DNA of 64,000 nucleotides from Mesostigma viride. Taxonomy: Eukaryota > Streptophyta > Mesostigmatophyceae > Mesostigmatales > Mesostigmataceae. The notes under the pieces are model-generated. The model was not told the DNA's origin. It saw only the letters and a program-made list of their open reading frames with translations, and made no database searches. The stretch lies in assembly GCA_009746045.1 (NCBI GenBank), contig RPFO01000165.1:432001-496000 (forward strand), read 5' to 3'. A program made the translations under genes and the position numbers. Numbering within the stretch: the stretch's first letter is position 1; every line of letters begins with the position of its first letter. Below are positions 15,677-30,419 of the stretch, in pieces.

Positions 15677-18470
15677 TTGGGGGTGCTTGTTGGTTGGACT
15701 TTTGCAGCTCCCGGGGGGAGCCAAAAATCCTATGACGTCAACGTGCCACTTATTCTGGACGTGCCTGTGGGGAACGACATCATCGAGGTCAAATGCTGTC
15801 ATCGGGCCATGCGGCAGCTGTTGGGCATTCAGCATTCGGTTTGGCGCACTTACCTTGCACAGGCGGCGGCCAGTTTCTCCATGCCGGTGGATGGGGATGT
15901 CTTGGATTATCATGGGCTCACTGAGGAGGACCTGGCCGATGTCGCCAAGCATCCGGGCGGCTCTTCGGCGAAGGAGTGGTGTGCAGCGTGGCAGATGGAC
16001 TTCGCAAAGGAATGTGGGGACTACGACCCTGCGAGAGCGGCCAACGAGATTCTCTTGGGTGACTTGAATATGAAGCAATGCTGGGAACACGAGTACAAGG
16101 AGGACCTCAGGTTAGAATGCGGGGAAGATGAGGCCCTGTTCAAGTCTCTATGTCTCAGCTACAGTCCCTTTATGAAATGCTGGAAGCAAGTAGCCCTTGG
16201 AAACTATTGGCCAGGTAGTCCTAAGATTCGCATGCTGGAGTACACGAGGAATGTGGGTGTCTGCCAGACGTGCGTTCTTTTGCGGACGCTGCGCCGAGGT
16301 GCCGGTTCTGGAGAGCGGCGAAAACGCTATGACCTGGAGCGCCGGAAGCACATGGCTTTGGTCCGCCGCGAAAGACGTGAGTACGCGAGGCTGTGCCGCC
16401 TGGCGATCAAGGGGCTAATCTTGCTTTTCTGCTTAGACAAGATTGACAGCACCAAGACCTTGTCACCCCTGGTAGCTAATGCACCTAAGGGCTGGGAGCA
16501 GAATCGGGCTAAATGCCTTGAATTCAGTTTGTATTGCGGCATCATATTGGGTGGCACCTCGACGTTTTTTCCCGTGTGGCCATGGGTGGAGGTACATGGG
16601 CAGTCTGGCAGCGTGACGTGCACGATGCTAGAGTGCATGTTGGCTGACTGGGAGGCGGCCAAGTCGTGGGAGGCTGCCAGCCAGCCTCGTCCAACGGAAG
16701 CCCATTTTCAGCTGGACGGAGGGAGCGAGAACAGGAATGACACCGTATTGCTCTGGGCAGCCAAGTTGGTGGAGGATGGCCGCTTCGACAAGGTTCACAT
16801 CCACAGGTTGATGCGTGGGCATTCTCACGTTGATCCTGACCAGCGCTTCGGCCACTTGTGGGCAACGGTGGCCAAGAGTGGACGTGGCAAGGACGTGGTT
16901 GTCTACGGTGCGCCTGACGACTTCTTTGATGCCATCTTGAGCGCTTTTGAGCATGCGGACGTGGTGGCAGCTGAAGACATGAGCGCCAAGACTCCAGCTG
17001 GGACCCGGGTGAAGGTTTTAGGCTGCGTGTATGATGTCGCGGCCTGGCTGCTGCACCGGAAGGAACCAAACTTAGCTGGCTGGAGCATGGCACTAGACTA
17101 CATGCCTCCAAGCGCTGACTCTGAAGATGGTCTCCCTACGCGGACTGGCAAGGCTGCTCGCTGCCACCACACCTCATTTCGGAAAGTGCAAGGCAACCCA
17201 GAGGTGTGGATGAGCTACCAGTGCTACATCGTCACGCAGCCGCGGCCAGATGGTGTACTCTCAGGGCGTGTTCTCGCCTATGATCAGCAGGGGCGTCCCC
17301 TGTATGGCATTCGCGTGTTTGATCCGGACATTCCTTGCGCGACCGCAGGGCCCCTGCTGGCTGGTCTCAACCTGCGATACCTGGAGGTGAGTAATTTGAA
17401 CCATGGTGAAGCTGTAAGCATTTGCTACCAAGTTTGCTTTCATTACTCGTCATACCTCTTGGTTATTTGATGTATTCTTTGTCCATTGGTGCAACCTTAT
17501 CTAAATTTGGCCTCGGATATGCTCGACTTAAGTACTCCTTGTCCATGTCGCACTGCTCTGCCCATGCATGCAGGAGAACATCCCAAGAATCAAGCTATTC
17601 GTGGGCGGGCTGCATGGTACCGTGTGGGCTCAGTATTTCGTCGACGCGAAGACAAAGGTGAACCGGTTGATCCGGTGGGCAGAATTTTGGCCAAAGGTCC
17701 CCAAGGGCATTGACACTGTCCCCGCGGAGTGGAGGCCTCCTGAATGGCCCCGCCCTTCCCCGCGCAGTGCGCCGACGCCTCTGCCAGCAGCAACATACGA
17801 GGAGGAGGAACTGGCTTTGGCCATCGGGGCTGCTGTAGAGCCGTTGGTGCCTTCTGTACGACATGCGGGCTTTACGCAGGCGCAGTGGGATGAGGCGAAT
17901 AGGGCCATAGCCTTCGACATAGCTGCAGCCCAAGCGTCTGTAGGCCTTGAAGAGGGGCACCCAGTTATTGTAGCCCATCCTTGTTTGGCTGAAGGCAACA
18001 CCAAGTTTACGTGGACACCTGCTCTGTACGGTGTAGTCCACAAGACGCCTGCGCCAGGGGACACGACCGTCTTGGTAGAATGTTTTCATGCTGATCACTA
18101 CGCTGCCAAGTGGCTCAGGTGGCATCCATCATCTGCCGGCGTACCGGTGTCATCATCATTGCCCGTCCATGTGTATGCGGTGCCCAAGGGGGACGTGCTC
18201 CTTTCGTCGTGGCCAGGGCCCACCAAGGCGAAGCCAAACACCGTAAAGCTTACAAAGGGGGGGTGCCTGGCTGCAGCCACTGTAGATGCCCTGCAACAAG
18301 TAGTGAAGGATGACAGACTTTGTTTTGCAGAGTACAAGAATGCAGCAGCTGCTAGGGCTAGGAACAGCGAGGCTTGGGAGAAGCGGGTAGCGGATGGTAT
18401 CATGGTGTCCACTCCCATCTGTAGATGGTATGCTGTGGGAGCTGGCAAAAAAGATTTCACGGTAGGGTAA
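15677..18470 (+). CDS. DUF7869-like protein (RNase H-fold, transposase-associated), two exons
   Basis: Exon 1 runs 15677-17386 and exon 2 17574-18470, joined in phase 0 across a GT-AG intron. Family marks are the Cys-containing start (IEVKCCHRAMRQLLGI), a CQTC motif with basic region, LDKIDSTKTLSPL, QLDGGSENRND with D~347, and RGHSHVDPDQRFG (H~382), the local form of the GHTHEDIDQ-type signature. DUF7869 proteins are abundant in repeat-rich eukaryotes and behave like mobile-element proteins; the reaction is unproven. The start is uncertain: TTTTGCAG at 15700-15707 looks like an acceptor, so the ATG at 15677 may lie in an intron. A frameshift in an A-run near 18450 cuts the C-terminus. Confidence 0.65.
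17387..17573 (+). other. Intron of the DUF7869-like gene
   Basis: A 187-bp intron with donor GAG|GTGAGT and acceptor CATGCATGCAG|GAG. It joins CTGGAG to GAGAACATCC in phase 0 and removes in-frame stops, so the two exons form one open frame. Confidence 0.75.
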
Positions 18471-19421: not shown

Positions 19422-20054
19422 ATCCAATAAAAAAAAAAAAAAAAAAAGTGAACATCCGGTCCGAGGATGCGGATGGCGCTGCCTTCTATTCCCCCAACCA
19501 CCGGCCTGACATCGTGGTGCTGGACTTTGAGGGGGGTGGCCGGCATCTGCTTATTGACGTTTCGGTGGCGCGGCCCTTGGCTCTTAGCCACGTGGCTGGG
19601 GCCTCCCTCACGGCAGGTTACACGGCGGACCGGGCGGAGCGGGCCAAGCTCCTGGCCTACGGCGACGTCGGGCACCATCGTGTGGTGCCCTTTGTCCTGG
19701 AGGAGTTTGGGGCCATGGGGCCCCTGACCTCCGCCTTCTTCAAGGAGTGTTGCCGGCTCCGGGAGGACCGGCTGGACCTGGAGGGCCAGCGGGCCCCATG
19801 GTCGGCGCGGACCTGGACGTCATATTGGCGTCAGCGCTTGTCGGTGGCGCTGACTCGGGCCATGGCTGACATCATGCTCCGCCGTACGCGGGCTGATTTT
19901 GCGGTGCAGCAGGGCTATTAGGTTCCTCCCGTTAGGCGTTTCCATTGGTCTTATCGTAGTATCGAGCTTTGACATGGCTCTGTATATAGGTTTATAGCTG
20001 GGCGTTTGCTTTGGTTTGAGTGATTTCACTCTGCTGTAAGTAATTATATTTTTA
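19422..20054 (+). mobile_element. 5'-truncated non-LTR retrotransposon (REL-endonuclease type), copy 1
   Basis: Bounded by a 14-bp duplication. Its 3' end GTAATTATATTTTTA is identical to copy 2 (50407). The 5' end carries ATCCAATA plus an A-run of about 20 before the truncated coding part, an unusual position for poly(A) in a sense-oriented copy. Confidence 0.8.
19448..19921 (+). pseudogene. C-terminal restriction-like endonuclease of a non-LTR element (truncated)
   Basis: 157 codons nearly identical to the end of the copy-2 protein. RPDIVVLDFEGGG...LLIDVSV gives the PD-(D/E)xK-like pattern of REL endonucleases (R2/R4/NeSL-like lineages), which nick target DNA for target-primed reverse transcription. 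A downstream E-R-A-K...Y motif fits too. RT and the zinc knuckle are missing through 5' truncation, so this copy cannot move on its own. The ATG at the 5' end is supplied by flanking sequence. Confidence 0.7.
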
Positions 20055-20068: not shown

Positions 20069-20086
20069 GAAGCAAACACGCAATAT

Positions 20087-20410
20087 ATGGCGAGCAAACG
20101 CTCCTCCGCACAACGCAGCCTGATGGCTGCGCTAAGCCCTGAAAATACGTCTGCAGCTCCGGCTGCAGCTTTGCCCTCCGGCCCCGAAGGCAGCGGCGCC
20201 ACTAGCCAAGCCCTAGTGGTCGCCCAGCCCCCCGAGCCCCCCTCGCCCGCAGCGTCGCCTGAGCCCAAGCGCAGTCGCCCTGCCGAGCCGAACTGGGACG
20301 AGTTCGACTTTGACGCCAGCCAGCCCGGCTTTGTTGACAAGCTCACCCACGACCGCCTCCTGGCCTGCGTGTTTTTTGGATCGCACGCCTCGCTTATTGA
20401 ACTCAACTGC
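20087..20410 (+). CDS. Gag N-terminus (gypsy element), before a frameshift
   Basis: Starts MASKRSSAQRSLMAALSP and is Ala/Pro/Ser-rich with a basic PKRSRPAEP patch. The frame is good until about LLACVFFGSHASLI, after which a frameshift near 20400 sends it into noise. In the neighbouring frame the protein continues (LEYPVEHVKAIAEWNGAF) into the long ORF. The ATG lies where an LTR element leader would end. Gag forms the particle; this N-terminal part has no specific motif. Confidence 0.6.
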
Positions 20411-20412
20411 GG

Positions 20413-23400
20413 CTGGAGTACCCAGTTGAGCACGTCAAGGCCATCGCGGAATGGAATGGAGCGTTCACCGTCGCCGAGGGTGAGGATCCGGCTTTCTCCC
20501 TTGACCGGCTTCTCGCGTTTGCGGGCAAAGTGCCTGATTATACGCAGACCAAGGCTTGCCGGTTATGGCGGAGTGCAGTGCCCCTGCTGGCCATCGATCT
20601 TCCGGAGCCGCCCGGTGGGGAGTGGACTTTGGTGACTCTCTGTGCAGCATTCAAGCGGCTGCTCAGGAAGCGTGCGGAAGGCGAGAAGGGTATCTCGTCT
20701 GAGCTGGCTGAGATGCGCAAGAAGATGGCTGAGATGGAGAAGGCCATCGCGGTCAAGGGTGGCCAGCGGCTGCCTGGTGCGGGGCGCGGTGAATATGTCG
20801 GCACTCAGGGTGGTGGCAACGCCGGTCACGGGGGCAGCGGCGGTGGCGGTCAGGGTGGCAGCGGCGGTGGCGGTCAGGGTGGCAGCGGCGGTGTCAGTCG
20901 TGGTGGCGGCGGCAGTGGCTACGGTGGTCGGGGTCGCGGTGGTGGTCGAGGCGGAGGCGGTCGTCCGCCGTCATCGGATGGGACTCAGGAGGCGCAGGGC
21001 GTGCAAGGCGCGCTGGGCGCACCCACCCCGTCACGCGGTAAATGTTACCTTTGCGACAAGGATGGGCACCTTAGTCGCGAGTGTCCAAGCCGCTGCACGA
21101 AGCCGCATGGGGCAGACACGAAGTGGCACCTGATGAACAAGTGTCCAGCCGCGGGCATCAAGACGGTCCACTTCGCCGAGATGGCGGGCAAGACCGACTC
21201 GATGGAAGCCCAGGTGGCTGCCATCAAGCATGGTGAGGAGGCGACGGCGCCCCCCAACCAATTCGCGACGGTGTACCGGGAGGACCCATTCTGGGCGCCC
21301 ATGCCGGGTGACGTCGAGATCAACGCTGCGGAGGCTACCAAAGGCAAGCAGGCACGCAGCCCGCTTTCTTTTCAGCAGGCACCCATGTTGCCTGCCGGGC
21401 AGTTGCCCGCGTCCTTTTCCATGCCGCTGGCTGGGGTGCAATCTGCTTTTGAGCATGCGAACCCTGCTGGGCTGGAGCAGCGTAGGCGATTGGCGCCTGT
21501 GTACCCAATGCCGTTCATTGTGGACGTACCCATGTTTTCAGCACGGCAGGTGGTCGACACCTTCGGGCAGAAGGGGGTTGAGTGGCTGGGGTCGGTTGTG
21601 TCCGAGATCCAGTTGTTCGCAGATGGGCATGATGTGCGCACCTTGCGCAATTCTGAGTCCGTCACCTACGGGCGTCAGCCGGTAGAAGCCGCAGTGCCCG
21701 TGGTGCAAGCGGGAGTGGTCAGCACAAGTAGCCAGCAGCGCACTAGTGCAGTTCCCCAGGTTCCCACGGTGGTTCCATACCCCAATGGTGAGCCGTCCAT
21801 AGCGTTCCAAGCAGTTGGAGCCTGTGGAGATGTATGGAGCGACATGGTGACATGTCCGTTGGTTGGCGCAGTCAAGCTTGATAGCGGTGCTCAGCCGCTA
21901 GTCATCAGCACAGACTTGGCCACCATGCTGAACCTGACCTACGAGAACGGTGGCTTAGTAGAAAGCCCCGTGTCTGTGTCAGGTTGGCAGGGTCCGGCTA
22001 GTAAGCCGTACGCTATGACGGCGGTTAAAGTCAACGTGATTTTCAATCCGTTGCGCGCCTCTAGCATGACCACCGTGTCCGCGTATGCGCTGGTGGTCAA
22101 CAAGTGTGGATATTCCGCACTACTCGGGGTGGATGTCCTTGCTCGCGCCATGGTTCAGGTGGACTATAGGGCGGAGGAGGCATCTTACATCCCTGATTGG
22201 GATGGGGCTGGCCTGAAGCGGGCCAGTGTGCCGGTCTCATGCTTCAGTTCTTCAGCCGGGGCTGCACGCCTCAACCCTTCCGCGGCTGCGGGCGTGGTGG
22301 AGGTCAGCATGGTGGAGGTACGGGCGGCGGGCTCATCGGCGTGGGACAAGCATCGGACGGTGCTGCCTCAGCCAACGGCGAGCATTGCCAAGATGCGCAC
22401 GCAGTGGTCGCTGGATGCTGTGACGTCCACGCGGCAGCTGGCTATGCGCAAGCGGGTGACTGAAGCCGTCGTCACCGTTCCTCAGATGGCCAGCCATGGC
22501 CTCACTTTGGTGCAACCGGGTGTCTCGGAGGCCCAAGGTAATTTTTCTGCTGCAATCTTACCGCAGGCCCCTGATTTTGCCAAGGGTGCGGTAGTGTTGG
22601 AACTGTTTGCGGGGATCGGAGGGGGCATTGCAGGCTTTTTGGCCGCAGGCGGCGTGTGCCGTAAACTCATCGCGGTAGAGCCATCGCACAAGGCGCGTCA
22701 GGTGTACTTCAGTCACTGTGGCGTGTTGTCGCGAGAGTATCCCGCGCAGTTTCCGCCATCAGCATGGCGTGACCCGTTTGGGGAATGTCCTCAAGATATC
22801 CGAGCCATCGGTGAGGTGCAGGTGCAGCAGTTGTTGCGCAGGCATCATGCCATCGACTTGGTAATCGCGGGTTGGGAGTGCCAGGGCCTGAGCCAGGCAG
22901 GGCAAGGGCGGGGGCTAGCCGATCCGCGTAGCGCGCTGTTCTGGGAACTGTTGCGTGTGGTGGGACTGTTGCAGTCGCGTCAGCCCCATCCGCCTGCGTA
23001 TCTGTTTGAGAACGTTGTGGCGGGTGACAGCCCACATCAGGCGGTGCGGGAGGACTGGGCTACAATCGTGGCACTCCTGGGGGAGCCCATCGTGTGTGAC
23101 AACGCAGGGCTGGGTGGGCTCACGCATCGTTTGCGTGCCTATTGGACCAACGTGGCGTGTGCGACCGGTGTGCAGGCGGTCTTGGGGGCCGTAGCAAGGC
23201 AGCATCCGAGTGTGTCTGCGGAGGTAGCATTGCCTTCCCACCTAGTCACGCAGAAGGTGGATAGCGAGGATCGCCCACCGTATGCACGCGTCAACCGGGT
23301 CGGGAGCCCCATGTGTGCACTGCCGACCCTGGTCAGTTACCAAGGGTCGACAGCATACCGTGATCGGGGTAAGGGTCTCGTTTGGGACACTACCACCGGT

Positions 23401-24408
23401 CTGTTGGTGCAGCCACCCGCAGAATTTCGTGAGGCCAGCATGGGTTTTCATGTCGGGGCCTCGGCGCTGCCGGGCGTGCTCGAGAGTGAGCGCTGGTCTT
23501 TGATAGGCCAGGCTATGTCGGTGTTGCAGGTCGGGTATGTGCTGCTTGCATCGGTTGCCGTGCGCCAGTCTGGGGGGGCGTCCCCAGCCAATCCGCCTCA
23601 GCAGGTTGAGGCGCGTGCAGCCAAACTGAAGCGCCCTGCAGCGACGGGGACTTCATCAGCATGGGGGTGGCGTCTGCGACAGGTGTGGACTATCATTCTC
23701 ATGACCGCCCTGCTGACCAGCACCGTGCTGGCCGGCGAGCCCACGCTGCATCGGGTAATACACCGTGCGGCACGCGAGGCTCCGGCGGTGGGTGTCACAC
23801 CAGGTGTGGCAGCCTTTTCCTTGTTCCACGACGATGCGGCTAGGGCGCCGCATCTTGAGGCACATGCGGTAGCTGTGGGTGATCCCGCGGATACGCACCC
23901 CTGGGCTATTGGCGAACACCTTTCTGATGCGCAGCGCTCAGCCATGCTAAAGTGGCTAGGCACTGCAAGGGGGGCCTTCGCTTTCACAAGTGATGAACTG
24001 GGGTGTTTCAATGGTGGGACCATGCGTGTTCCATTGGACACTGACACTCCTTTGTTCCGACGCCAGCATCGCCTGAGTCAGGCCGAGTTGGATTTTGTAG
24101 CCGAGCAATGCAAGGAGTTAGAGGATGCCGGTATCATCAGGCAATCTTCCTCCAGCTATGCTGCTGCCGTTGTCGTTGCGCCCAAGAAGGACGCTATCAC
24201 CGGGGCATGGACGGGTATGCGCATGGCCACCGATCTGCGGTTGCTGAATGCACACACACCCGTGGACCGTTACCCCATGCCACGTGTGGATGATGTCCTG
24301 GATAAGATATCTCCTCATGTGAAGTTTGTGTCCTCGCTGGACCTGCGTAGCGGCTTTCATCAGATCGCAGTTGCGCCGGAGGATCAGCGGAAGCTTGCAT
24401 TCTGGGGG
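20413..24408 (+). CDS. Gag-protease-methyltransferase-RT polyprotein (gypsy element)
   Basis: Counted from the first in-frame ATG (20530), about 1,290 residues before a 1-base deletion in a G-run. Helical Gag; coiled-coil-like ELAEMRKKMAEMEKAI (~59-74); Gly-rich linker; knuckle C172-x2-C175-x4-H180-x4-C185; retropepsin with D451-S-G-A and LLGVDVL; C5-methyltransferase at ~686-1010; a hydrophobic segment near 1050 (IILMTALLTSTVLA); then RT from ~1130 (LSQAELDFVAEQCKELEDAG; catalytic Asp of SLDLRSGFHQI at D1271). RT continues in the next frame at 24417. The methyltransferase sits between protease and RT without breaking the frame, so it is co-translated. Confidence 0.85.
22587..23560 (+). other. 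C5-cytosine DNA methyltransferase domain within the gypsy polyprotein
   Basis: Transfers methyl groups from S-adenosylmethionine to cytosine C5. Motif I LELFAGIGGG (~689-698) binds AdoMet. Motif IV is GWECQGLSQAG with catalytic Cys784, preceded by Glu where most family members have Pro (PCQ). Motif VI is FENV (Glu827). Motif VIII is HRLRAYWTN (866-874), closest to the HRxRxxW form of DNMT3-type enzymes. Motif X-like GFHVGASALP...SLIGQAMSVLQVGYV closes the domain. All catalytic residues are present and no stop interrupts it, so the domain looks intact though its host element is damaged. Captured methyltransferases in algal retroelements have been reported; the precise clade needs a tree. Confidence 0.88.
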
Positions 24409-24416
24409 GCGGCAAT

Positions 24417-26640
24417 TTGTATGAGTGGGTGCGCATGCCCTTTGGGCACCGCAACGCTAGTGCTGTTTTCCAACGAGCTATGGACAAAGTGCTTGCAGGT
24501 CTTCCTTTCGCCGCTTGTTACATTGATGATGTAATCGTCTTTAGCGCGACATTTGAGGAGCACCTGGCGCACTTGGAGCAGGTTCGCTTGGCTCTCGAGG
24601 AGCATAATATGCGGCTGCACCCTGAGAAGTGCAAGTTCGCCCAGCGGACCCTCTCATTCCTTGGTCATCAGATTGTGCCGGGTGGCCGGACGCCTGATGC
24701 CGCCAAGGTCGAATCCATTGCGCAGGCCGCCGTACCCACGGATGTCTCAGGGGTGCGGGCGTATTTGGGTTTGGCTGGCTATTACCGAGGTTACATTGAG
24801 AACTTCAGCAGCAAGGTGAAGCCCTTGACCGAGTTACTCAAGAAGGGGTGCGTGTGGGCGTGGGGTCCCGCACAGCAACGCGCCATCGAGACAATCAAGC
24901 AGGAGCTCACGTCGGCACCGATTCTGCGCGCCCCTGACTATGCTTTGCCATTTGTGTTATATACCGACTGGTCCAAGGTAGGACTGGGTGCGGTCTTGGC
25001 GCAAAAGGATGGTGATGGGCGCGAGCACGTTATTGCTTATGCTAGTCGCAGCAACAACCCAGCGGAGAGCCGGTATTCTTCCTATGAGGGGGAGGCACTG
25101 GCTGTGGTGTGGGCCATCAAGCACTTTCGCCCGTATTTAGTTGGGCGCGTGTTTACTCTGGTGACAGACCACCAGCCGCTTCAGTGGCTAATGACCAACA
25201 CCAACCTGACGGGTAAGCTCGCCCGATGGGCCATGATTATCCAGGAGTACCACATGACCATTGTGCATCGGGCCGGCAAGGACCATGTCAACGCCGATGT
25301 GCTATCCCGATACGCCATGCCTACCACTGTTGACCACACTGGAGCCCGGGCCATGGGTGCCGAGGGCTCGTCGGGTTCTGTGGTCTTTGTGAACGCTGCT
25401 GGGTATGCGGCCGACGATGAGGAGGAGGCGTGGTGGCGCAGTGTCGAGTACTCTGTGGCGGACTTCGGCATCAGCGACGACCCGGTGCGGCCGTCGCCAT
25501 TCACGCCATCCAAAGCTGTGTGCGCTATGGAAGAGGGTAGGTCTCTGTCCTTTGACATTGATCCTTCTCTGCAGCAGCTGATCGCTGTGCAGGCTCTCTT
25601 AGCGCGTAGCTCTCTTGCTGATTGCTACACCGCTGATATCTGGCTAGATGGTCGAGTTTTGGAGCAAGTGCAGGGTGCTGTCTTGACTCCTACTCCAGTC
25701 GATTGGACTCCTGCTCAGAAGGCGACGGAGTTGAACAGGGTGCAGCACAGGGCTGCAACCTATGGTTGGGAAGATGGGGTTTTGTACAAGCTGTTGGGCA
25801 AGCGTAGGGTGGTCGTCCCACCGCCTGACAAGCGCGTTGCTATAGTGCAGGCGTACCACGAGCGGTATGGTCACTTGGGTGGCAATCGCACGCTCAGCCT
25901 CGTACGGACCAGCTATTGGTGGAATAACATGCGACACACAGTGGCCCAGGTAGTGGCCAGCTGTGTCCCGTGTGCTCGAACCAAGGCTAACTTTAGCGCA
26001 GATCATGGTGCCAAGGAGCTGATGTCGCTTCCCATCAAGGGCTTGTTTTATCGCTGGCACGTCGATCTGTGCGGGCCGTTTCAGGAGAGCCCTGACGGCA
26101 ACCTCTATGTCATGGTATGCGTGGAGAGCTTTAGCAAATGGGTTGAGTTGATCCCCATTGCTGACAAGCATGCCGCTACCACAGCGAAGCATTTTGCAGA
26201 CATCATCACCAGGTTTGGGGCTCCCGCGGAGGTAGTCACGGACCAGGGTGGTGAGTTCAGGGGTGAGTTCCAGGAGTTGCTGGATGGATGTCTTATTGAT
26301 CACCGTCGCACTTCTCGGGAGCATCCTCAGGCCAATGGTTTGGCTGAGAGATTGGTGCAGACCGTCAAGCAGGCGCTGCGCAAGTGGAGCCTGCAGGTGC
26401 CGGAGTCGGCCAGGTGGGATCGCGAGTTGGCATGGATTGCCATGGGTTATCGCATGTCTCCCCAGGAGTCTCTCGCTACCTTCTCCCCGTATTTCCTTCT
26501 GTTCGGGCGTAATCCTCTTTTGCCTATACGGAGGCACAGGTTGCGCACCACGAACCCATGGCCTTCGACAACGCTCAGCAATTTTTGGTTGAGGTGCTGG
26601 CCAGGGCAGAGACTTTTAAGAAAGTCATGCCCATCGCGAT
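24417..26640 (+). CDS. RT (C-terminal half)-RNase H-integrase (gypsy element)
   Basis: Continues the polyprotein after the G-run deletion. RT: RMPFGHRNASAVFQ and the catalytic YIDD at residues 35-38. RNase H: LYTDWS, YEGEALAVV, TDHQPLQWL. Integrase zinc domain: YHERYGHLGGNRT...CVPC (HHCC). Integrase core: HVDLCGP, VVTDQGGEF and the E of NGLAERLV. All catalytic residues are present. The last ~35 residues, after LFGRNPLLPI (near 26525), are out of frame because of another single-base loss; the true frame reads on through a TAG at 26648 to the next entry. Confidence 0.87.
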
Positions 26641-26707
26641 GAACAACTAGTTCATTGCTCAGCACAGGGATTCCCTGCGCTACGCTCAGCGCCGGGGGGG
26701 CACATAC

Positions 26708-27172
26708 ATGGCTCGCCAGCTGCGGTTTAGGCCAGGGCAGTATGTTTTCCTGCGCACTCAGCTGAAGCACACTTTGGATGTGGAGGCGGGGCCCACCATT
26801 TTGCGCATTGTGGCTATCAAACCATCGGGAGCTGCAATTTTGGAGGGCGCCGACGGGAGCCGTACGACTGACAACCTCAGCAATCTCAGTCCCTGCTCGC
26901 TGCCCAATTTGGTCCACGACCTCCAACCGCACACGTCTCGCCGAGTCAAGGACGCCCAGTGTCAGGTTTGTCACCGGGTCGATCAGGCGGAGTCCATGTT
27001 ATTGTGTGATCAGTGTAACTGTGGTTGGCACATGCAGTGCTTGCAGCCAGTGGTCACCAGCATTCCGGAGGGGGATTGGTTTTGTCCAGTGTGCACCGCT
27101 GCGCAGTTTACCTCCCGCAGCTTGACTGCGGTCACCGCTGCCCTTGTCTTGGTACGATCGCTGTCTTCGTGA
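26708..27172 (+). CDS. Integrase C-terminal domain with PHD finger (gypsy element)
   Basis: RFRPGQYVFLR is the GPY/F-like strand found at the end of gypsy integrases. Where many gypsy elements carry a chromodomain, this one has a PHD finger of C4HC3 type: C85-x2-C88, C100-x2-C103, H108-x2-C111, C126-x2-C129. PHD fingers read histone H3 tails; here it probably tethers the integration complex to chromatin of a given state. The Met at 26708 is only the first ATG after a stop; the domain belongs to the upstream polyprotein. The frame ends with a short Ser/Thr/Val-rich tail. Confidence 0.85.
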   Translation: MARQLRFRPGQYVFLRTQLKHTLDVEAGPTILRIVAIKPSGAAILEGADGSRTTDNLSNLSPCSLPNLVHDLQPHTSRRVKDAQCQVCHRVDQAESMLLCDQCNCGWHMQCLQPVVTSIPEGDWFCPVCTAAQFTSRSLTAVTAALVLVRSLSS

Positions 27173-27199
27173 TGGGGCCGGTCGCCAGCGAGGGGGGGA

Positions 27200-27280
27200 A
27201 TCATGGGACAGGTCCTCGCCCACCCCACAGGGCATGCAGTCAGCTCAGCTCATTTGGGTTTTACCAAATTAAGCTGAGTG
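27200..27280 (+). repeat. Duplicated segment, copy 1 left part (presumed gypsy LTR start)
   Basis: Starts ATCATGGGACAGG right after the purine tract and matches 29369-29461. It includes an imperfect hairpin (CTCAGCT...AGCTGAG). Copy 1 continues at 28064-28112 after the TIR element. Copy 1 lacks 14 bp (TTAAGGCAGGCACG) present in copy 2. Confidence 0.75.
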
Positions 27281-28063
27281 CATTACAATTCGTTCAAGTG
27301 GCCCGCCGGAGCGGCTGTACAATTTTTCCCAGTGAGCGCGCTGCCAAGTGTACTTGTGGGCAAATTTTTAGGTGCCCCGTCACTTCGAGGTACTAAAAAT
27401 TAGGCTACGGTACGAATTCAGCGAATTTCAGCGAATTTTCAGTCGAACCAAAGGAAGTGACGGCAACTACCAAAAAGTTTCCGTTACGAATTTTCAGCCC
27501 AACACTCGCGCAAAATGAAGTGACGGCAACTACCAAAAAGTTTCCGTTACGAATTTTCACTCCCACACGTTTGCACAAGAGGAAGTGACGGCAACTACCA
27601 AAAAGTTTCCGTTACGAATTTTCAGTCCCACACTTTGCGCAAATTTTAGTAGGGCTGCACGCAAGCTACCGTTCAAAATTTTGCGCTAGTATGGAACGCA
27701 TTTCATTCGTCTGGAGGAACGCTGCCCGCCAACTACCCCCGTTCAGAATGTTCCGCCGAAATTTACTTGAGATTTGGAAATCTGAACGTGCGCGCAAATT
27801 TTAGTAGGGCTGCACGCAAGCTACCTTTCAAAATTTTGCGCAAGTATGGAACGCAATTCATTCGTCCGGAGGAATGCTGCTCGTCAACTGCCCCCGTTCA
27901 GAAAGTTGCGCCGAACTTTACTTGAGATTTGGAAATCTGAACGTGCGGTTGGAGTTTCGCGGGGAAACCCAAGTTCCCGAGTAATTCACCAATGACGCGC
28001 TTCGAACACTTGCCCGCTAAAACCTAAGCAGCCGCTCCGGCTGGCCACTTAAACGAAACGGGA
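27281..28063. mobile_element. 783-bp non-autonomous TIR element with known empty site
   Basis: 29-bp near-perfect TIRs (TTCGTTYAAGTGGCC...) lie at 27289-27317 and 28029-28057. Copy 2 of the host repeat (29460/29461) has the uninterrupted sequence CTGAGTGGCCAGCC, so the insertion borders and a likely 2-bp TG duplication can be read directly. No coding capacity; the inside is mostly tandem repeats. Confidence 0.8.
27453..27945. repeat. Two tandem repeat sets inside the TIR element
   Basis: First, three ~64-bp units with GAAGTGACGGCAACTACCAA and GTTTCCGTTACGAATTTTCA. Second, two ~155-bp units beginning GCGCAAATTTTAGTAGGGCT and ending GAGATTTGGAAATCTGAACG. Confidence 0.85.
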
Positions 28064-28112
28064 TGGCCAGCCGCCATGGTGGCGCCGGAGATTGTGGCAC
28101 GCAGACGCGACA
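28064..28112 (+). repeat. Duplicated segment, copy 1 right part
   Basis: TGGCCAGCCGCCATGGTGGC... to GACGCGACA, matching 29461-29509 in copy 2. Confidence 0.8.
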
Positions 28113-29368
28113 GCTGTCACGGACGCGAGCTATGTCATCCGGGCGGCGCCCACTATGCACAAGACCGGTGACGTGCGCAAGGAATTTGTTTTCTACGCAT
28201 TTTCGACAAAGGCTAGTGACCGGGGGGGGGACACTAGCACTTGCAGCATAAGAGCGGACGAAAGTGCACGTGCACGCGCGCCGGGCCAGGCACAGCTGGG
28301 CGCGCAGCACTGACTTGAACGGACGGCAGCACAAGTGCGCAGCGTCGAGAGGATCATACGCGTGTTAGTGGACAGCTGGAGCTGAAGCTGGACTGCTGGA
28401 CTTCAACAGCGCCGAGGCTATTGACAGGCCAGGTGTCTTTGTGGTGTAGAATAGCGGGTCAACGTTATGAGGACTGGACAGAAAATGGAAAAGGACCATT
28501 TGCGGTGCGGAGCCAGATCGCTGGAAGGAATGCGAAATCGCTGGCAGCCCTACAAAGGGATTTCTTCTAGAAAGGAAAGATTAGACGCAATGTTTGCTGG
28601 GCCACTCACACGCAAGGTGTGAGCGTGCAGATTGTCTGAAGGATATTATGCTTCGACCTTGGTGGACGTGACTCAATGCCGGACATTCCCAGGGACAGAA
28701 ATGCCGGAGCCTCTAGGAGATGAGATCGGCAACAGGGTAGCAATTTAGGTTTGTCGGGATGCCTTCCTGCTTTTGTTGGCATGTGTGGTAGAAAGCCAGG
28801 ACGGCAACTGGAATGCGGTTTCTATTTGCATGGTTCAGGCAGCAAGATAGTTTTGGCATTCCTGGCTGGACTGACAAGTGTGGCGTGTGGCATGCGTGTG
28901 GCATGACGAATGGTTTGGTTCATAGTCGAAGAGGACTCTCACGCAACGTGTAGTCTCTTCGAGTCTCTCGTTAGTGGCCTTCGTGTTTCTCCCTTTCCTT
29001 GGGAGCAAGGCCGGTAGCATGTCATGGAGCGCTGCCTAACTGCGGGCTCGTGAGCATGGAGTGCATCGATATTGAGACTATCAACGTGTTGTAATTGTAT
29101 TAACTTTCTCAATAAATTCCGCATGTGCGGCTTCATCATCAGACTGTGCAAAGTGTGTGTTGTGAAAGCATTGTTCTATAGCAGGGGAGGCAAAAGCATC
29201 CTCTTGCACCATCATATTGTCGCAATTAGAGTAGTTGGAGCGTCTAGCTAACGCCCCAGCAAGAATAGTCAAACGCGGCACGCGACGGTACACAAGGGGA
29301 TCAATAAGGTGGTCATCAGGCACGAGGGACAGTTCCTTGTCCTCGGCTGAGAGCCCTCTTTTCATTGA
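28113..29368. other. Unassigned DNA between the two copies of the duplicated segment
   Basis: Probably the rest of a gypsy LTR or flanking repeat. The only frame of note is minus 29365-29081 (95 codons, ending ...AHAEFIEKVNTITTR), which I do not recognise; its start abuts the duplicated segment. No tRNA or LTR partner found. Confidence 0.4.
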
Positions 29369-29509
29369 TCATGGGACAGGTCCTCGCCCACCCCACAGGG
29401 CATGCAGTTAAGGCAGGCACGTCAGCTCAGCTCATTTGGGTTTTACCAAATTAAGCTGAGTGGCCAGCCGCCTTGGTGGCGCCGGAGATTGTGGCACGCA
29501 GACGCGACA
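29369..29509 (+). repeat. Duplicated segment, copy 2 (empty site of the TIR element)
   Basis: Uninterrupted version of 27200-27280 plus 28064-28112. It runs straight into LINE RT sequence. Confidence 0.8.
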
Positions 29510-30419
29510 CATTTATGCCGACGACATCACGCTCATCGAGAAGCCGGAGTCTGCCCAACTCTGGCTGGACTGCCTGGCGCTCGAGGCTCGGGCGGTTGGT
29601 CTAGAAATCAGCCCCAAAACGGAGGCCCTGGCCCTCGGCATGGCAGGGCCCCCACCCACACTCCGCCTCTTAGACGATGCCGAGGTCAACTACCCTCCTT
29701 CAGGCCGCTTCAAGCTGCTCGGCAGTTGGCTTCCCGACTGCGAGGACGACATGACGACACGGATCGGCATGGCGTGGGCGCACCTCCATGACCACCGCCG
29801 CTGGTGGAGCAACCCCGCCCTACCCCGGATCGTCAAGCGTGACCTCTTCAAGGTCGTCATTCTGACGATCCTGACCTACGGCGCCGAGACATGGACACTG
29901 ACGCAGGAGCTGGAGCAACGACTCGACGGCGCCGTCACCAAGATGCTGCGCAAGGCCCTTAACATCCCCTGTGGTTTGCACATTAGTAATGAGGATTTGT
30001 ACGCTGATTTGCCCTATGTTTCCCACATTATTATTAGGCACAGGCGCCTGGGCCTAGCCGGGCACCTTGCCCGCACAGATCAGGTAGATACATCAGATAG
30101 ACTAGCTGGCACCAAGCCCGCCCAGCCTGGGCGATATGTCCTCACCTGGCGTGCCCCCGGCCGCGCGCGGCAGGGCCGCCACCCGTGGACTTTTCGTGAT
30201 AGACTCGGCATGGACATGTGCTACACTAGACGTGACGGGCTCACCCCCGGGCAGCCTCCTGGTTTGTCTGTAATATGGAGGCAGATGGTGCGCAAGGATA
30301 GATGGCAAGTAGTGATGAAGGAGACCAACCCCAAGCCTGTGGGGGCTCCGCGTGTGACCAATTATGGCATTCATAGCGATTCGGGCCGCGGTGCCCACAC
30401 CCCTGTAACTAGGACCTAG
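29510..30419 (+). pseudogene. 5'-truncated LINE reverse transcriptase, C-terminal part
   Basis: The open frame extends upstream through the duplicated segment, but RT homology starts at HIYADDITLIEKPES, where YADD is the catalytic motif of non-LTR RTs. Further marks are FKLLGSWL, ILTYGAETWTL and a terminal RHRRLGLAGHLARTD region typical of the LINE thumb and C-terminus. No endonuclease domain is visible upstream, and no REL domain like the 19.4 and 49.3 kb copies, so this is a different LINE. The RT fingers and most of the palm are missing. Confidence 0.75.

What the first reader, a model, noticed from the sequence alone, without database searches (positions are those of the whole stretch)
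20069..27203. Gypsy retrotransposon carrying both a DNA methyltransferase and a PHD finger
Seen: one polyprotein encodes a C5-cytosine methyltransferase (motifs I, IV, VI, VIII, X) between retropepsin and RT, and a C4HC3 PHD finger after the integrase. Known: retroelement capture of C5-methyltransferases has been reported in some algae and dinoflagellates, and chromodomains or PHD fingers occur at gypsy integrase ends. Inference: the element may write CpG methylation on its own copies (self-silencing or masking) and read histone marks for targeting. The writer-plus-reader pairing in one element is the most striking system in the window.
Basis: partly seen in the sequence, partly recalled or inferred. 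Interest (0 to 1): 0.9.

Follow-up and report, generated by a model that had tools for sequence, protein, structure and literature searches.

The report
Algal retrotransposon with DNA methyltransferase and PHD
A jumping element in a freshwater green alga carries a DNA-methylating enzyme of the Dnmt3 type and a histone-reading PHD finger; it is of the same kind as one element already described in another alga, with the PHD finger as the new twist.

Summary
The window lies in a 440-Mb assembly matching Mesostigma viride. A Ty3/gypsy-type pol carries a full C5-methyltransferase domain (22576-23562) between protease and RT, and a PHD finger (26960-27094) after the integrase. The window copy is not intact: truncated at 20404, frame broken twice, a 783-bp element in its 3' repeat, end at 29509. 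Other copies are intact: of rows listed, 3 of 21 (window's family) and 6 of 28 (sister family) have the whole pol open, and these are nearly identical, so recent. The enzyme is Dnmt3-type by profile and fold and more conserved between the families than the linkers. The PHD is closest to BAZ2A/B, readers of unmodified H3. Ends are unusual: split direct repeats as in DIRS, yet a DDE integrase, TGTC..GACA ends and exact 4-bp duplications in 8 of 8 copies readable at both ends. Closest known: KnitGypsy-Dnmt3 of Klebsormidium (PMC5890265), so the capture itself is published. New here, as far as searched: the PHD pairing, also in three environmental relatives, and the 4-bp duplications. Catalysis, histone binding and methylation of copies are untested.

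The parts
20404..29509 (+). 5'-truncated copy of a Dnmt3- and PHD-bearing gypsy-type retrotransposon (family 1); includes a 783-bp foreign insert
   Evidence: main stretch 99.1-99.4% identical to copies L035-L040 over 20404/21048/21146 to about 27136-27280; 3' part 97-99% to L035, L036, L039
20530..24534 (+). open frame: zinc knuckle, protease, methyltransferase, N-terminal part of RT
   Evidence: the ORF listing, Pfam
21043..21087 (+). CCHC zinc knuckle
   Evidence: PF00098 1.7e-4; position
21877..22140 (+). aspartic protease core (LDSGA ... LLGVDVL)
   Evidence: PF13650 0.058, below cut-off; motif positions
22576..23562 (+). C5-methyltransferase domain, Dnmt3 type; motif I 22591, IV (ECQ) 22870, VI (EN) about 23008, VIII (HRLR) 23122, IX 23425, X 23503
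   Evidence: PF00145 4.1e-11; DNMT3A best in PDB by profile 2e-19 and by fold 1.2e-10; positions
24181..24674 (+). reverse transcriptase, frame broken in the region 24417-24534
   Evidence: PF00078 in two frames; ORFs overlap 24417-24534
24861..25250 (+). RNase H
   Evidence: PF17917 6.3e-39, PF17919 3.7e-36
25818..26327 (+). integrase: H2C2 zinc domain and DDE core
   Evidence: PF17921 2.5e-17, PF00665 2.6e-11
26708..26940 (+). integrase C-terminal (GPY/F-like) module, in another frame than the integrase core in this copy
   Evidence: ORF 26708-27172; AGPTILRIV at 26786-26812; module name recalled
26960..27094 (+). PHD finger, C4HC3, BAZ2-like; Glu codon 26990-26992 aligns with the BAZ2A acidic-wall position
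   Evidence: PF00628 4e-10; BAZ2B 2.6e-16; acidic wall
27199..28112 (+). 3' repeat B1 (27199-27280 plus 28064-28112), split by the insert
   Evidence: segment mapping
27281..28063 (+). 783-bp insert of another repeat element (holds tandem repeats); L034 holds a 99% copy
28113..29366 (+). repeat A2 (the counterpart of the missing 5' A1)
   Evidence: A1 absent upstream
29368..29509 (+). 3' repeat B2, ends ..CGCGACA, element 3' terminus

Best explanation
It is a copy of a young, multicopy gypsy-type retrotransposon whose Pol is protease - Dnmt3-type methyltransferase - RT - RNase H - integrase - PHD. Shown: domain make-up, intact copies, constraint between families, Dnmt3 kinship, DDE-type insertion with 4-bp duplications, split direct repeats. 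Inferred, the most likely mechanism: the methyltransferase is packaged with RT and methylates CpGs of the new double-stranded cDNA, so that it enters a CG-methylated host genome looking like host DNA; the PHD at the integrase end then holds the integration complex on nucleosomes with unmodified H3K4, that is, away from active promoters. Writer and reader act one after the other in one life cycle, cDNA first, target chromatin second. The confidence given is for identity plus cDNA methylation; with PHD targeting as well it is about 0.3.
For: Domains of the window; the same in other copies by alignment and reading (those copies were not scanned with Pfam). Whole pol open in 3 of 6 fetched family-1 copies (2074 aa) and 6 of 13 fetched family-2 copies (1642 aa), copies chosen partly for long frames; over all rows listed these are 3 of 21 and 6 of 28. 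Intact copies differ from a reference copy by 3-4 of 6222 or 0-2 of 4926 bases. Between families pN is 0.23 for the methyltransferase and 0.17 for the PHD, against RT 0.15, RNase H 0.09, IN 0.18, linkers 0.38-0.51. Dnmt3 type: DNMT3A 72.8 bits, 4onj (a DRM, recalled) 54.1, DRM2 44.1, HhaI 38.7, DNMT2-type 24.5-35.7, DNMT1 13.3; all 50 Foldseek rows listed are from entries titled DNMT3A, 3B or 3C (model pTM 0.82). PHD: BAZ2B, BAZ2A best, a class that binds unmodified H3 through an acidic wall (PMC5415848, passages); the Glu is kept in both families. Host: 5mC by LC-MS/MS, CG the main site by bisulfite (PMC6947507 section 14). Precedent: Dnmt3 domains of SymbioDIRS methylate CG de novo in yeast (PMC5890265 section 10). 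Insertion: 8 of 8. Methyltransferase plus PHD also in P0005, P0008, P0009.
Against: No activity, expression, histone-binding or methylation data for this element. The closest published element, KnitGypsy-Dnmt3, showed no activity in yeast, judged inconclusive by its authors. Motif IV has Glu for the usual Pro. CpG o/e of the element is high (0.78-0.83), not depleted. Within family 1 the few changes in the methyltransferase are mostly amino-acid changes (4 of 5 counted in four copies, partly shared). The acidic-wall Glu is not kept in P0005 and P0008 and not evident in P0009 (read by eye), and P0009's PHD is below Pfam's cut-off (17 of 24 bits). A Trp stands one residue from where K4-methyl readers have theirs (recalled), so the reading class is uncertain. 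The chromatin of insertion sites was not examined.
Confidence: 0.5

Rival explanations
1. After integration: the methyltransferase marks the inserted copies in the chromosome, lowering host damage (self-restraint) or hiding them in methylated chromatin, and the PHD recruits the enzyme to them.
For: Dnmt3 plus a reader of unmodified H3K4 is the logic of animal DNMT3A with its ADD domain (recalled; a DNMT3A-DNMT3L complex with histone H3, 4u7t, is among the rows). In Klebsormidium, CHH and CHG methylation lies on silent elements, KnitGypsy-Dnmt3 copies among them (PMC5890265 section 9).
Against: The methyltransferase sits next to protease and RT, the PHD next to the integrase: after proteolytic maturation they need not stay together. 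Recent multiplication speaks against strong self-silencing. High CpG o/e gives no support.
Confidence: 0.2
2. The methyltransferase fold is kept for a non-catalytic or RNA-directed job (nucleic-acid binding, packaging, RNA methylation), and the PHD is only a structural end of the integrase.
For: ECQ at motif IV; the published KnitGypsy domain showed no activity in yeast; relatives show E, P or S at that position.
Against: Catalytic Cys, the EN of motif VI and the R-x-R of motif VIII are invariant in the 7-sequence alignment; the modelled fold covers the whole domain, though the loop after the Cys is poorly modelled.
Confidence: 0.2
3. Passenger capture: the domains are host cargo picked up by chance and drifting.
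For: The window copy itself is broken. Within family 1 the few methyltransferase changes are mostly amino-acid changes.
Against: Constraint between two families whose synonymous sites are saturated; intact domains in other copies; methyltransferase plus PHD in environmental relatives at 29-34% identity.
Confidence: 0.04

Closest known systems
KnitGypsy-Dnmt3, Klebsormidium nitens (de Mendoza et al. 2018, PMC5890265; abstract, parts 1-2 of 7 of the text and sections 9, 10, 11 read, one word search)
   Same: Charophyte alga; Dnmt3 domain in the Pol frame of a Gypsy-type element; repeat structure described in the legend of Fig. 4 as that of a DIRS element; purifying selection on the domain.
   Different: No PHD is mentioned in its main text (0 occurrences; figures and supplements not seen); no target-site duplication for it in what I read; sequence not held here, so kinship could not be tested. 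Mesostigma does not occur in the parts I read.
SymbioDIRS-Dnmt3 and SymbioLINE-Dnmt of Symbiodinium (same paper)
   Same: Retrotransposon Pol with Dnmt3 (DIRS); order of domains within Pol differs between lineages, as in types I and II here.
   Different: Tyrosine recombinase or LINE machinery instead of DDE integrase. P0010, a metagenome protein that looks DIRS-like to me, falls outside the gypsy group in the tree.
Chromoviruses (gypsy elements with a chromodomain at the integrase end; recalled)
   Same: Histone-reading domain after the integrase GPY/F module.
   Different: PHD instead of chromodomain; no methyltransferase.
Ginger1 DNA transposons (PMC2836005, passages)
   Same: Gypsy-like integrase with GPY/F motif and, in some members, a C-terminal PHD.
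   Different: DNA transposons; other C-terminal domains are OTU or Ulp1 proteases; no methyltransferase in what I saw.
Animal DNMT3A/B with ADD domain (recalled)
   Same: Dnmt3-type catalytic domain paired with a zinc-finger reader of unmodified H3K4.

Membership tests
Ty3/gypsy LTR retrotransposons | Pol order protease-RT-RNase H-integrase | tested here: met
   (protease weak)
Ty3/gypsy LTR retrotransposons | H2C2 plus DDE integrase, TG..CA ends, short target duplication | tested here: met
   PF17921, PF00665; TGTC..GACA and exact 4-bp duplication in 8 of 8 copies with both ends readable, of 11 examined
Ty3/gypsy LTR retrotransposons | Simple long terminal repeats at both ends | tested here: not met
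   A-ORFs-B-A-B in L021, L023, L031, L029, L039 and A-ORFs-B in L027, L028, L037; one permuted copy, L036, reads B-A-ORFs-B-A, which would look like simple repeats
Ty3/gypsy LTR retrotransposons | tRNA primer-binding site | not tested
   not searched
DIRS elements | Split direct repeats | tested here: met
DIRS elements | Tyrosine recombinase, no target duplication | tested here: not met
   rve integrase and no tyrosine recombinase found by Pfam in the four window frames scanned; 4-bp duplications
KnitGypsy-Dnmt3 type | Dnmt3 within gypsy Pol plus DIRS-like repeat layout | tested here: met
   compared with the text
KnitGypsy-Dnmt3 type | Shared descent in sequence | not testable with these tools
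   no protein named as Klebsormidium among the hits; sequence not held
Dnmt3 methyltransferases | Closest to DNMT3 by profile and fold, motifs in unrearranged order | tested here: met
Dnmt3 methyltransferases | Motif IV Pro-Cys | tested here: not met
   ECQ in window, family 2 and P0002, P0003, P0004, P0008; ECR in P0009; PCQ in P0005, SCQ in P0006
Dnmt3 methyltransferases | De novo CpG methylation activity | not testable with these tools
   needs assay
Plant DRM | Permuted motif order | tested here: not met
   window motifs run I to X in order; in DRM chains the stretch matching the window's N-terminal part lies at the C-terminus
BAZ2-type PHD fingers | C4HC3 with acidic-wall Glu | tested here: met
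   alignment, gapless; paper passages; that the aligned Glu is E1689 is inferred from the construct's numbering (recalled)
BAZ2-type PHD fingers | Binding to unmodified H3 | not testable with these tools
   needs binding assay

The most novel reading that the evidence does not exclude
A widespread clade of DDE-integrating, split-repeat retrotransposons has rebuilt from separate parts the two-step logic of DNMT3A - a Dnmt3 writer and a reader of unmodified H3K4 - and uses it to deliver pre-methylated cDNA to inactive chromatin. It would be, as far as I know, the first element shown to bring its own methylation state to a chosen chromatin state.
Probability: 0.25. Interest if true: 0.85.

Novelty: new variant of a known kind. 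Interest (0 to 1): 0.6.

Why it matters
Elements silenced by DNA methylation would normally be expected to avoid it; why some carry a Dnmt3 enzyme is called unclear in PMC5890265 (discussion). These families offer a tractable case: a unicellular streptophyte with a published bisulfite methylome, near-identical intact copies, exact insertion boundaries and a PHD whose class predicts a target. Insertion sites against H3K4 state and methylation of young copies could be checked with standard kinds of data. The split repeats combined with a DDE integrase and target duplications also weaken the use of split repeats as a mark of tyrosine-recombinase elements.

Tried and rejected
Rejected: (1) that the methyltransferase is bacterial-type or contamination: profile and fold put it with DNMT3 and it sits in other copies of the genome. 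(2) Plant DRM: the best single-sequence PDB hit (4onj, a DRM by recall), but its motif order is permuted and the profile prefers DNMT3A by about 19 bits. (3) A single chimeric copy: refuted. (4) Ordinary LTRs: not supported by the layout. (5) DIRS: integrase and duplications disagree.

Led nowhere: the whole-genome protein search did not complete, so copy numbers rest on the Pfam search (127 matches, 123 of 415 candidates scored, window copy itself not listed: lower bounds). A first search for target duplications used fuzzy matching that misplaced the 5' boundary and gave 0-2 bp; one search repeated it with the exact start of repeat A, the 3' ends being those. IMG/VR scan gave 25 loci; I looked at the reading frame of 11 of 25 and they look by eye like phage-type enzymes (160-455 aa); the other 14 were not looked at. 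Prokaryote contigs: 17 stretches matched a pattern, none encodes a relative. Search with the integrase C-terminus plus PHD found 2 proteins at E 1e-6 or better (a PHD protein labelled Anopheles christyi and a metagenome PHD protein), neither with retroelement domains. The model of the extra C-terminal domain of relatives has pLDDT 42, unusable. Substitutions within family 1 are too few and shared: methyltransferase 5 (1 synonymous) and integrase C-terminus plus PHD 27 (22 synonymous) summed over four copies. Slippery site: a G run lies in the ORF1/ORF2 overlap of both families, in the right phase for -1 slippage only in family 2; inconclusive. Rfam on the window: none. Paper searches for PHD in gypsy elements, DNMT with retrotransposons and split repeats with integrase gave no report of this combination in the held library; listings were read by title and start of abstract. 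Of the papers opened by passages, PMC9998398 and PMC5408684 add nothing on it; the latter only cites a paper on PHD domains in CR1-like elements.
Full report
Where the window lies. The assembly has 439,911,974 bases in 2,243 contigs. A gene model whose source name is jgi/Mesvir1 is 100% identical over 77% of the queried methyltransferase part, and the published Mesostigma viride NIES-296 genome has 441,847,188 bp (PMC6947507, passage). I take it as Mesostigma viride, a unicellular charophyte (that Mesvir1 stands for this species is recalled). The same paper reports 5mC by mass spectrometry and CG as the main methylated site by bisulfite sequencing (section 14).

The observation. Frames and Pfam matches confirm zinc knuckle, methyltransferase, RT, RNase H, integrase and PHD in the order given; the protease match is under the cut-off. 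The window copy is broken: RT is split over two frames (overlap 24417-24534), and the integrase C-terminus with the PHD is in a third frame. Homology with fetched copies starts at 20404; two other copies (L038, L040) stay alike upstream of that point, the window does not share it. No 5' repeat is present upstream. The 3' end is at 29509, and a 783-bp foreign repeat sits at 27281-28063.

Copies. The PF00145 search of the assembly gave 127 matches, with 123 of 415 candidates scored. I count 21 rows in the class to which the fetched copies of the window's family belong (35.2-35.4 bits, profile 61-111) and 28 in the class of a sister family (43.4-45.1 bits); another 9 rows (37.4-39.2 bits) I could not assign. 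I fetched 6 of the 21 and 14 of the 28, chosen partly for long open frames, so fractions among them are not a fair sample. All 6 are 99.1-99.4% identical to the window over the main stretch. Of the 14, 13 are family 2 (ORF2 98.7% or more to copy L021; about 67-74% to the window) and one, L034, is a further lineage. Pol is open from end to end in 3 of 6 (L035-L037, 2074 aa) and 6 of 13 (L021, L022, L023, L025, L026, L027, 1642 aa); among all listed rows, 3 of 21 and 6 of 28 show these frame lengths (C58 shows a longer frame, 3371 aa, but in L038 the pol is split over two frames). These intact copies differ from a reference copy by 3-4 of 6222 and 0-2 of 4926 bases, so both families multiplied recently. 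ORF1 and ORF2 overlap by 184 and 187 bases in the -1 frame. By reading, in family 2 the protease-like part is in ORF1 and ORF2 begins about 100 residues before the methyltransferase; in family 1 both are in ORF2 (these copies were not scanned with Pfam).

Constraint. Between the two families synonymous sites are saturated (pS 0.71-0.85), so ratios are not reliable, but pN is informative: methyltransferase 0.23, PHD 0.17, RT 0.15, RNase H 0.09, integrase 0.18, integrase C-terminus 0.17, against 0.51, 0.43 and 0.38 in the three linkers (the protease row had only 4 aligned codons and is dropped). The methyltransferase is the least conserved of the enzymatic domains compared but far from free. Within family 1, four copies against L036 give 5 changes in the methyltransferase (4 amino-acid changes) and 27 in integrase C-terminus plus PHD (5 amino-acid changes); changes are partly shared between copies, so these are not independent counts.

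What the methyltransferase is. A profile of 7 retrotransposon methyltransferases matches DNMT3A at 72.8 bits, 4onj (a DRM, recalled) at 54.1, DRM2 at 44.1, HhaI at 38.7, DNMT2-type enzymes at 24.5-35.7 and DNMT1 at 13.3. The AlphaFold model (pLDDT 77, pTM 0.82; the other four models 57-68; residues 103-118 after the catalytic Cys are poorly modelled) gives 50 listed Foldseek rows, all from entries titled DNMT3A, 3B or 3C (E from 1.2e-10, TM 0.54-0.65 by query length). The motifs are not permuted, unlike DRM. Cys, EN and RxR are invariant in the 7 sequences. ECQ is shared by family 2, P0002, P0003, P0004 and P0008; others have ECR, PCQ or SCQ. In the tree 14 domains form one group (bootstrap 84, SH-aLRT 94, marked open by the program: suggestive); 11 of them come from proteins with other retroelement domains, 3 (P0012, P0014, P0016) are of unknown context. 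Outside lie P0010, which looks DIRS-like, P0018 and eight bacterial-type enzymes. Four proteins with the methyltransferase between RNase H and integrase or directly before the integrase (type II: P0005, P0006, P0008, P0013) group, with two of unknown context, at 92/98, also marked open. P0009, P0010 and P0022 have long branches. No named DNMT3 was in that tree, so its root and the number of captures stay open.

What the PHD is. Its best solved relatives are BAZ2B (2.6e-16) and BAZ2A (2.4e-14), then Lid and WSTF. BAZ2A/B PHDs bind unmodified H3 in a helical form with an acidic-wall Glu that rarely occurs together with the K4-methyl-reading Trp (PMC5415848, passages). The Glu is present in the window and in family 2. 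It is not present at that column in P0005 and P0008 and not evident in P0009, as far as I can read by eye.

Relatives elsewhere. Ten proteins were found with the methyltransferase part (only the 7988 candidates sharing most words were scored). Three of them reach beyond the integrase (P0005, P0008, P0009) and 3 of 3 have a PHD, one (P0009) under Pfam's cut-off; P0001, P0002, P0003, P0004, P0006 and P0007 end earlier, and P0010 has another RNase H and no gypsy integrase in its Pfam list. Apart from P0001 they carry no species names. P0019, from a eukaryote transcriptome assembly, has by eye a protease and the start of the methyltransferase, so a relative seems to be transcribed in some other eukaryote.

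Ends and insertion. Family 2 copy L021 reads A1-ORF1-ORF2-B1-A2-B2, with A of about 1.13 kb and B of 136 bp; family 1 has B of 143 bp. The outer ends are TGTCGCG/TGTCACG and CGCGACA; the inner B1-A2 junction is GACA-GC-TGTC. I looked for both ends in 11 copies: in 8 both were readable and 8 of 8 have an exact 4-bp duplication (about 1 in 256 each by chance); in L022 and L026 no A start lay in the 301 bases fetched; L025 has no complete 3' end. Five of the 8 are A-ORFs-B-A-B and 3 are A-ORFs-B, which B1-B2 recombination would give. L035 has the end of another unit directly upstream (tandem) and L036 reads B-A-ORFs-B-A; both lie on contigs of about 40 kb, and I did not resolve them.

How it most likely works. 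See Best explanation. Shown: structure, recent multiplication, insertion of the DDE type. Inferred: methylation of cDNA before integration, and tethering by the PHD. Confidence in the identity is about 0.95, in cDNA methylation about 0.5, in targeting by PHD about 0.5, in both together about 0.3.

Comparison. The Klebsormidium element KnitGypsy-Dnmt3 (PMC5890265) is of the same kind: Dnmt3 in the Pol of a Gypsy element, with a repeat layout like DIRS (section 9 and legend of Fig. 4). The paper's main text has no mention of PHD; figures and supplements were not seen, so I cannot exclude that its drawing shows one. A 2025 survey of eukaryotic DNMTs repeats that some DNMT3 are embedded in retrotransposons of streptophytes and dinoflagellates and has no occurrence of Mesostigma in its main text (PMC12344493, section 5 and passages). 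PHDs next to gypsy-like integrases are known from Ginger1 DNA transposons. So the capture is known; the pairing with a PHD and the exact 4-bp duplications were not found described in the held library (searches named in Tried and rejected).

Score. New variant of a known kind, interest 0.6: the core surprise was published in 2018; the writer-reader pairing recurs, is testable and adds a real question.

Noticed in passing
P0005 (last ~212 aa), P0008, P0009 C-termini: Relatives carry a further alignable ~210-aa domain after the PHD (29-34% identity), with motifs that look by eye like a Rossmann adenine-type methyltransferase (DPWCGxG; (S/A)P(P/H/W)(F/L)); the Mesostigma ORF2s end soon after the PHD. 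Model unusable, Pfam silent.
   Followed up: partly
L002-L007, L009, L011, L013, L018, L019 and similar rows: Many near-identical single-domain bacterial- or virus-like C5-methyltransferase ORFs (304-364 aa), several on contigs of about 30-45 kb; possibly an endogenous virus or another mobile element.
   Followed up: partly
window, 2-kb steps: CpG o/e is strongly mosaic: 0.13-0.32 in 34-44 kb and some other stretches against 0.8-0.95 elsewhere, as expected of a CG-methylated genome with young repeats.
   Followed up: partly
27281-28063; L034 7094-7878: A 783-bp repeat element with internal tandem repeats, 99% copy elsewhere, inserted in the 3' repeat.
   Followed up: partly
29510-30419 and 19448-19921: Flanks look by eye like non-LTR reverse transcriptase fragments (YADDI motif; C-terminal part), so this copy lies among other retroelements.
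   Followed up: no
15677-17470: 597-aa open frame of unknown kind with DGGSEN..., resembling an integrase-like region by eye.
   Followed up: no
C111, C133 (L035, L036, L041, L042): Tandem or permuted element copies on contigs of about 40 kb, perhaps arrays, circles or assembly products.
   Followed up: partly
P0005, P0006, P0008, P0013 against window, family 2, P0002, P0009: The methyltransferase occupies two different places in Pol (before RT, or between RNase H and integrase), as if shuffled within the clade.
   Followed up: partly
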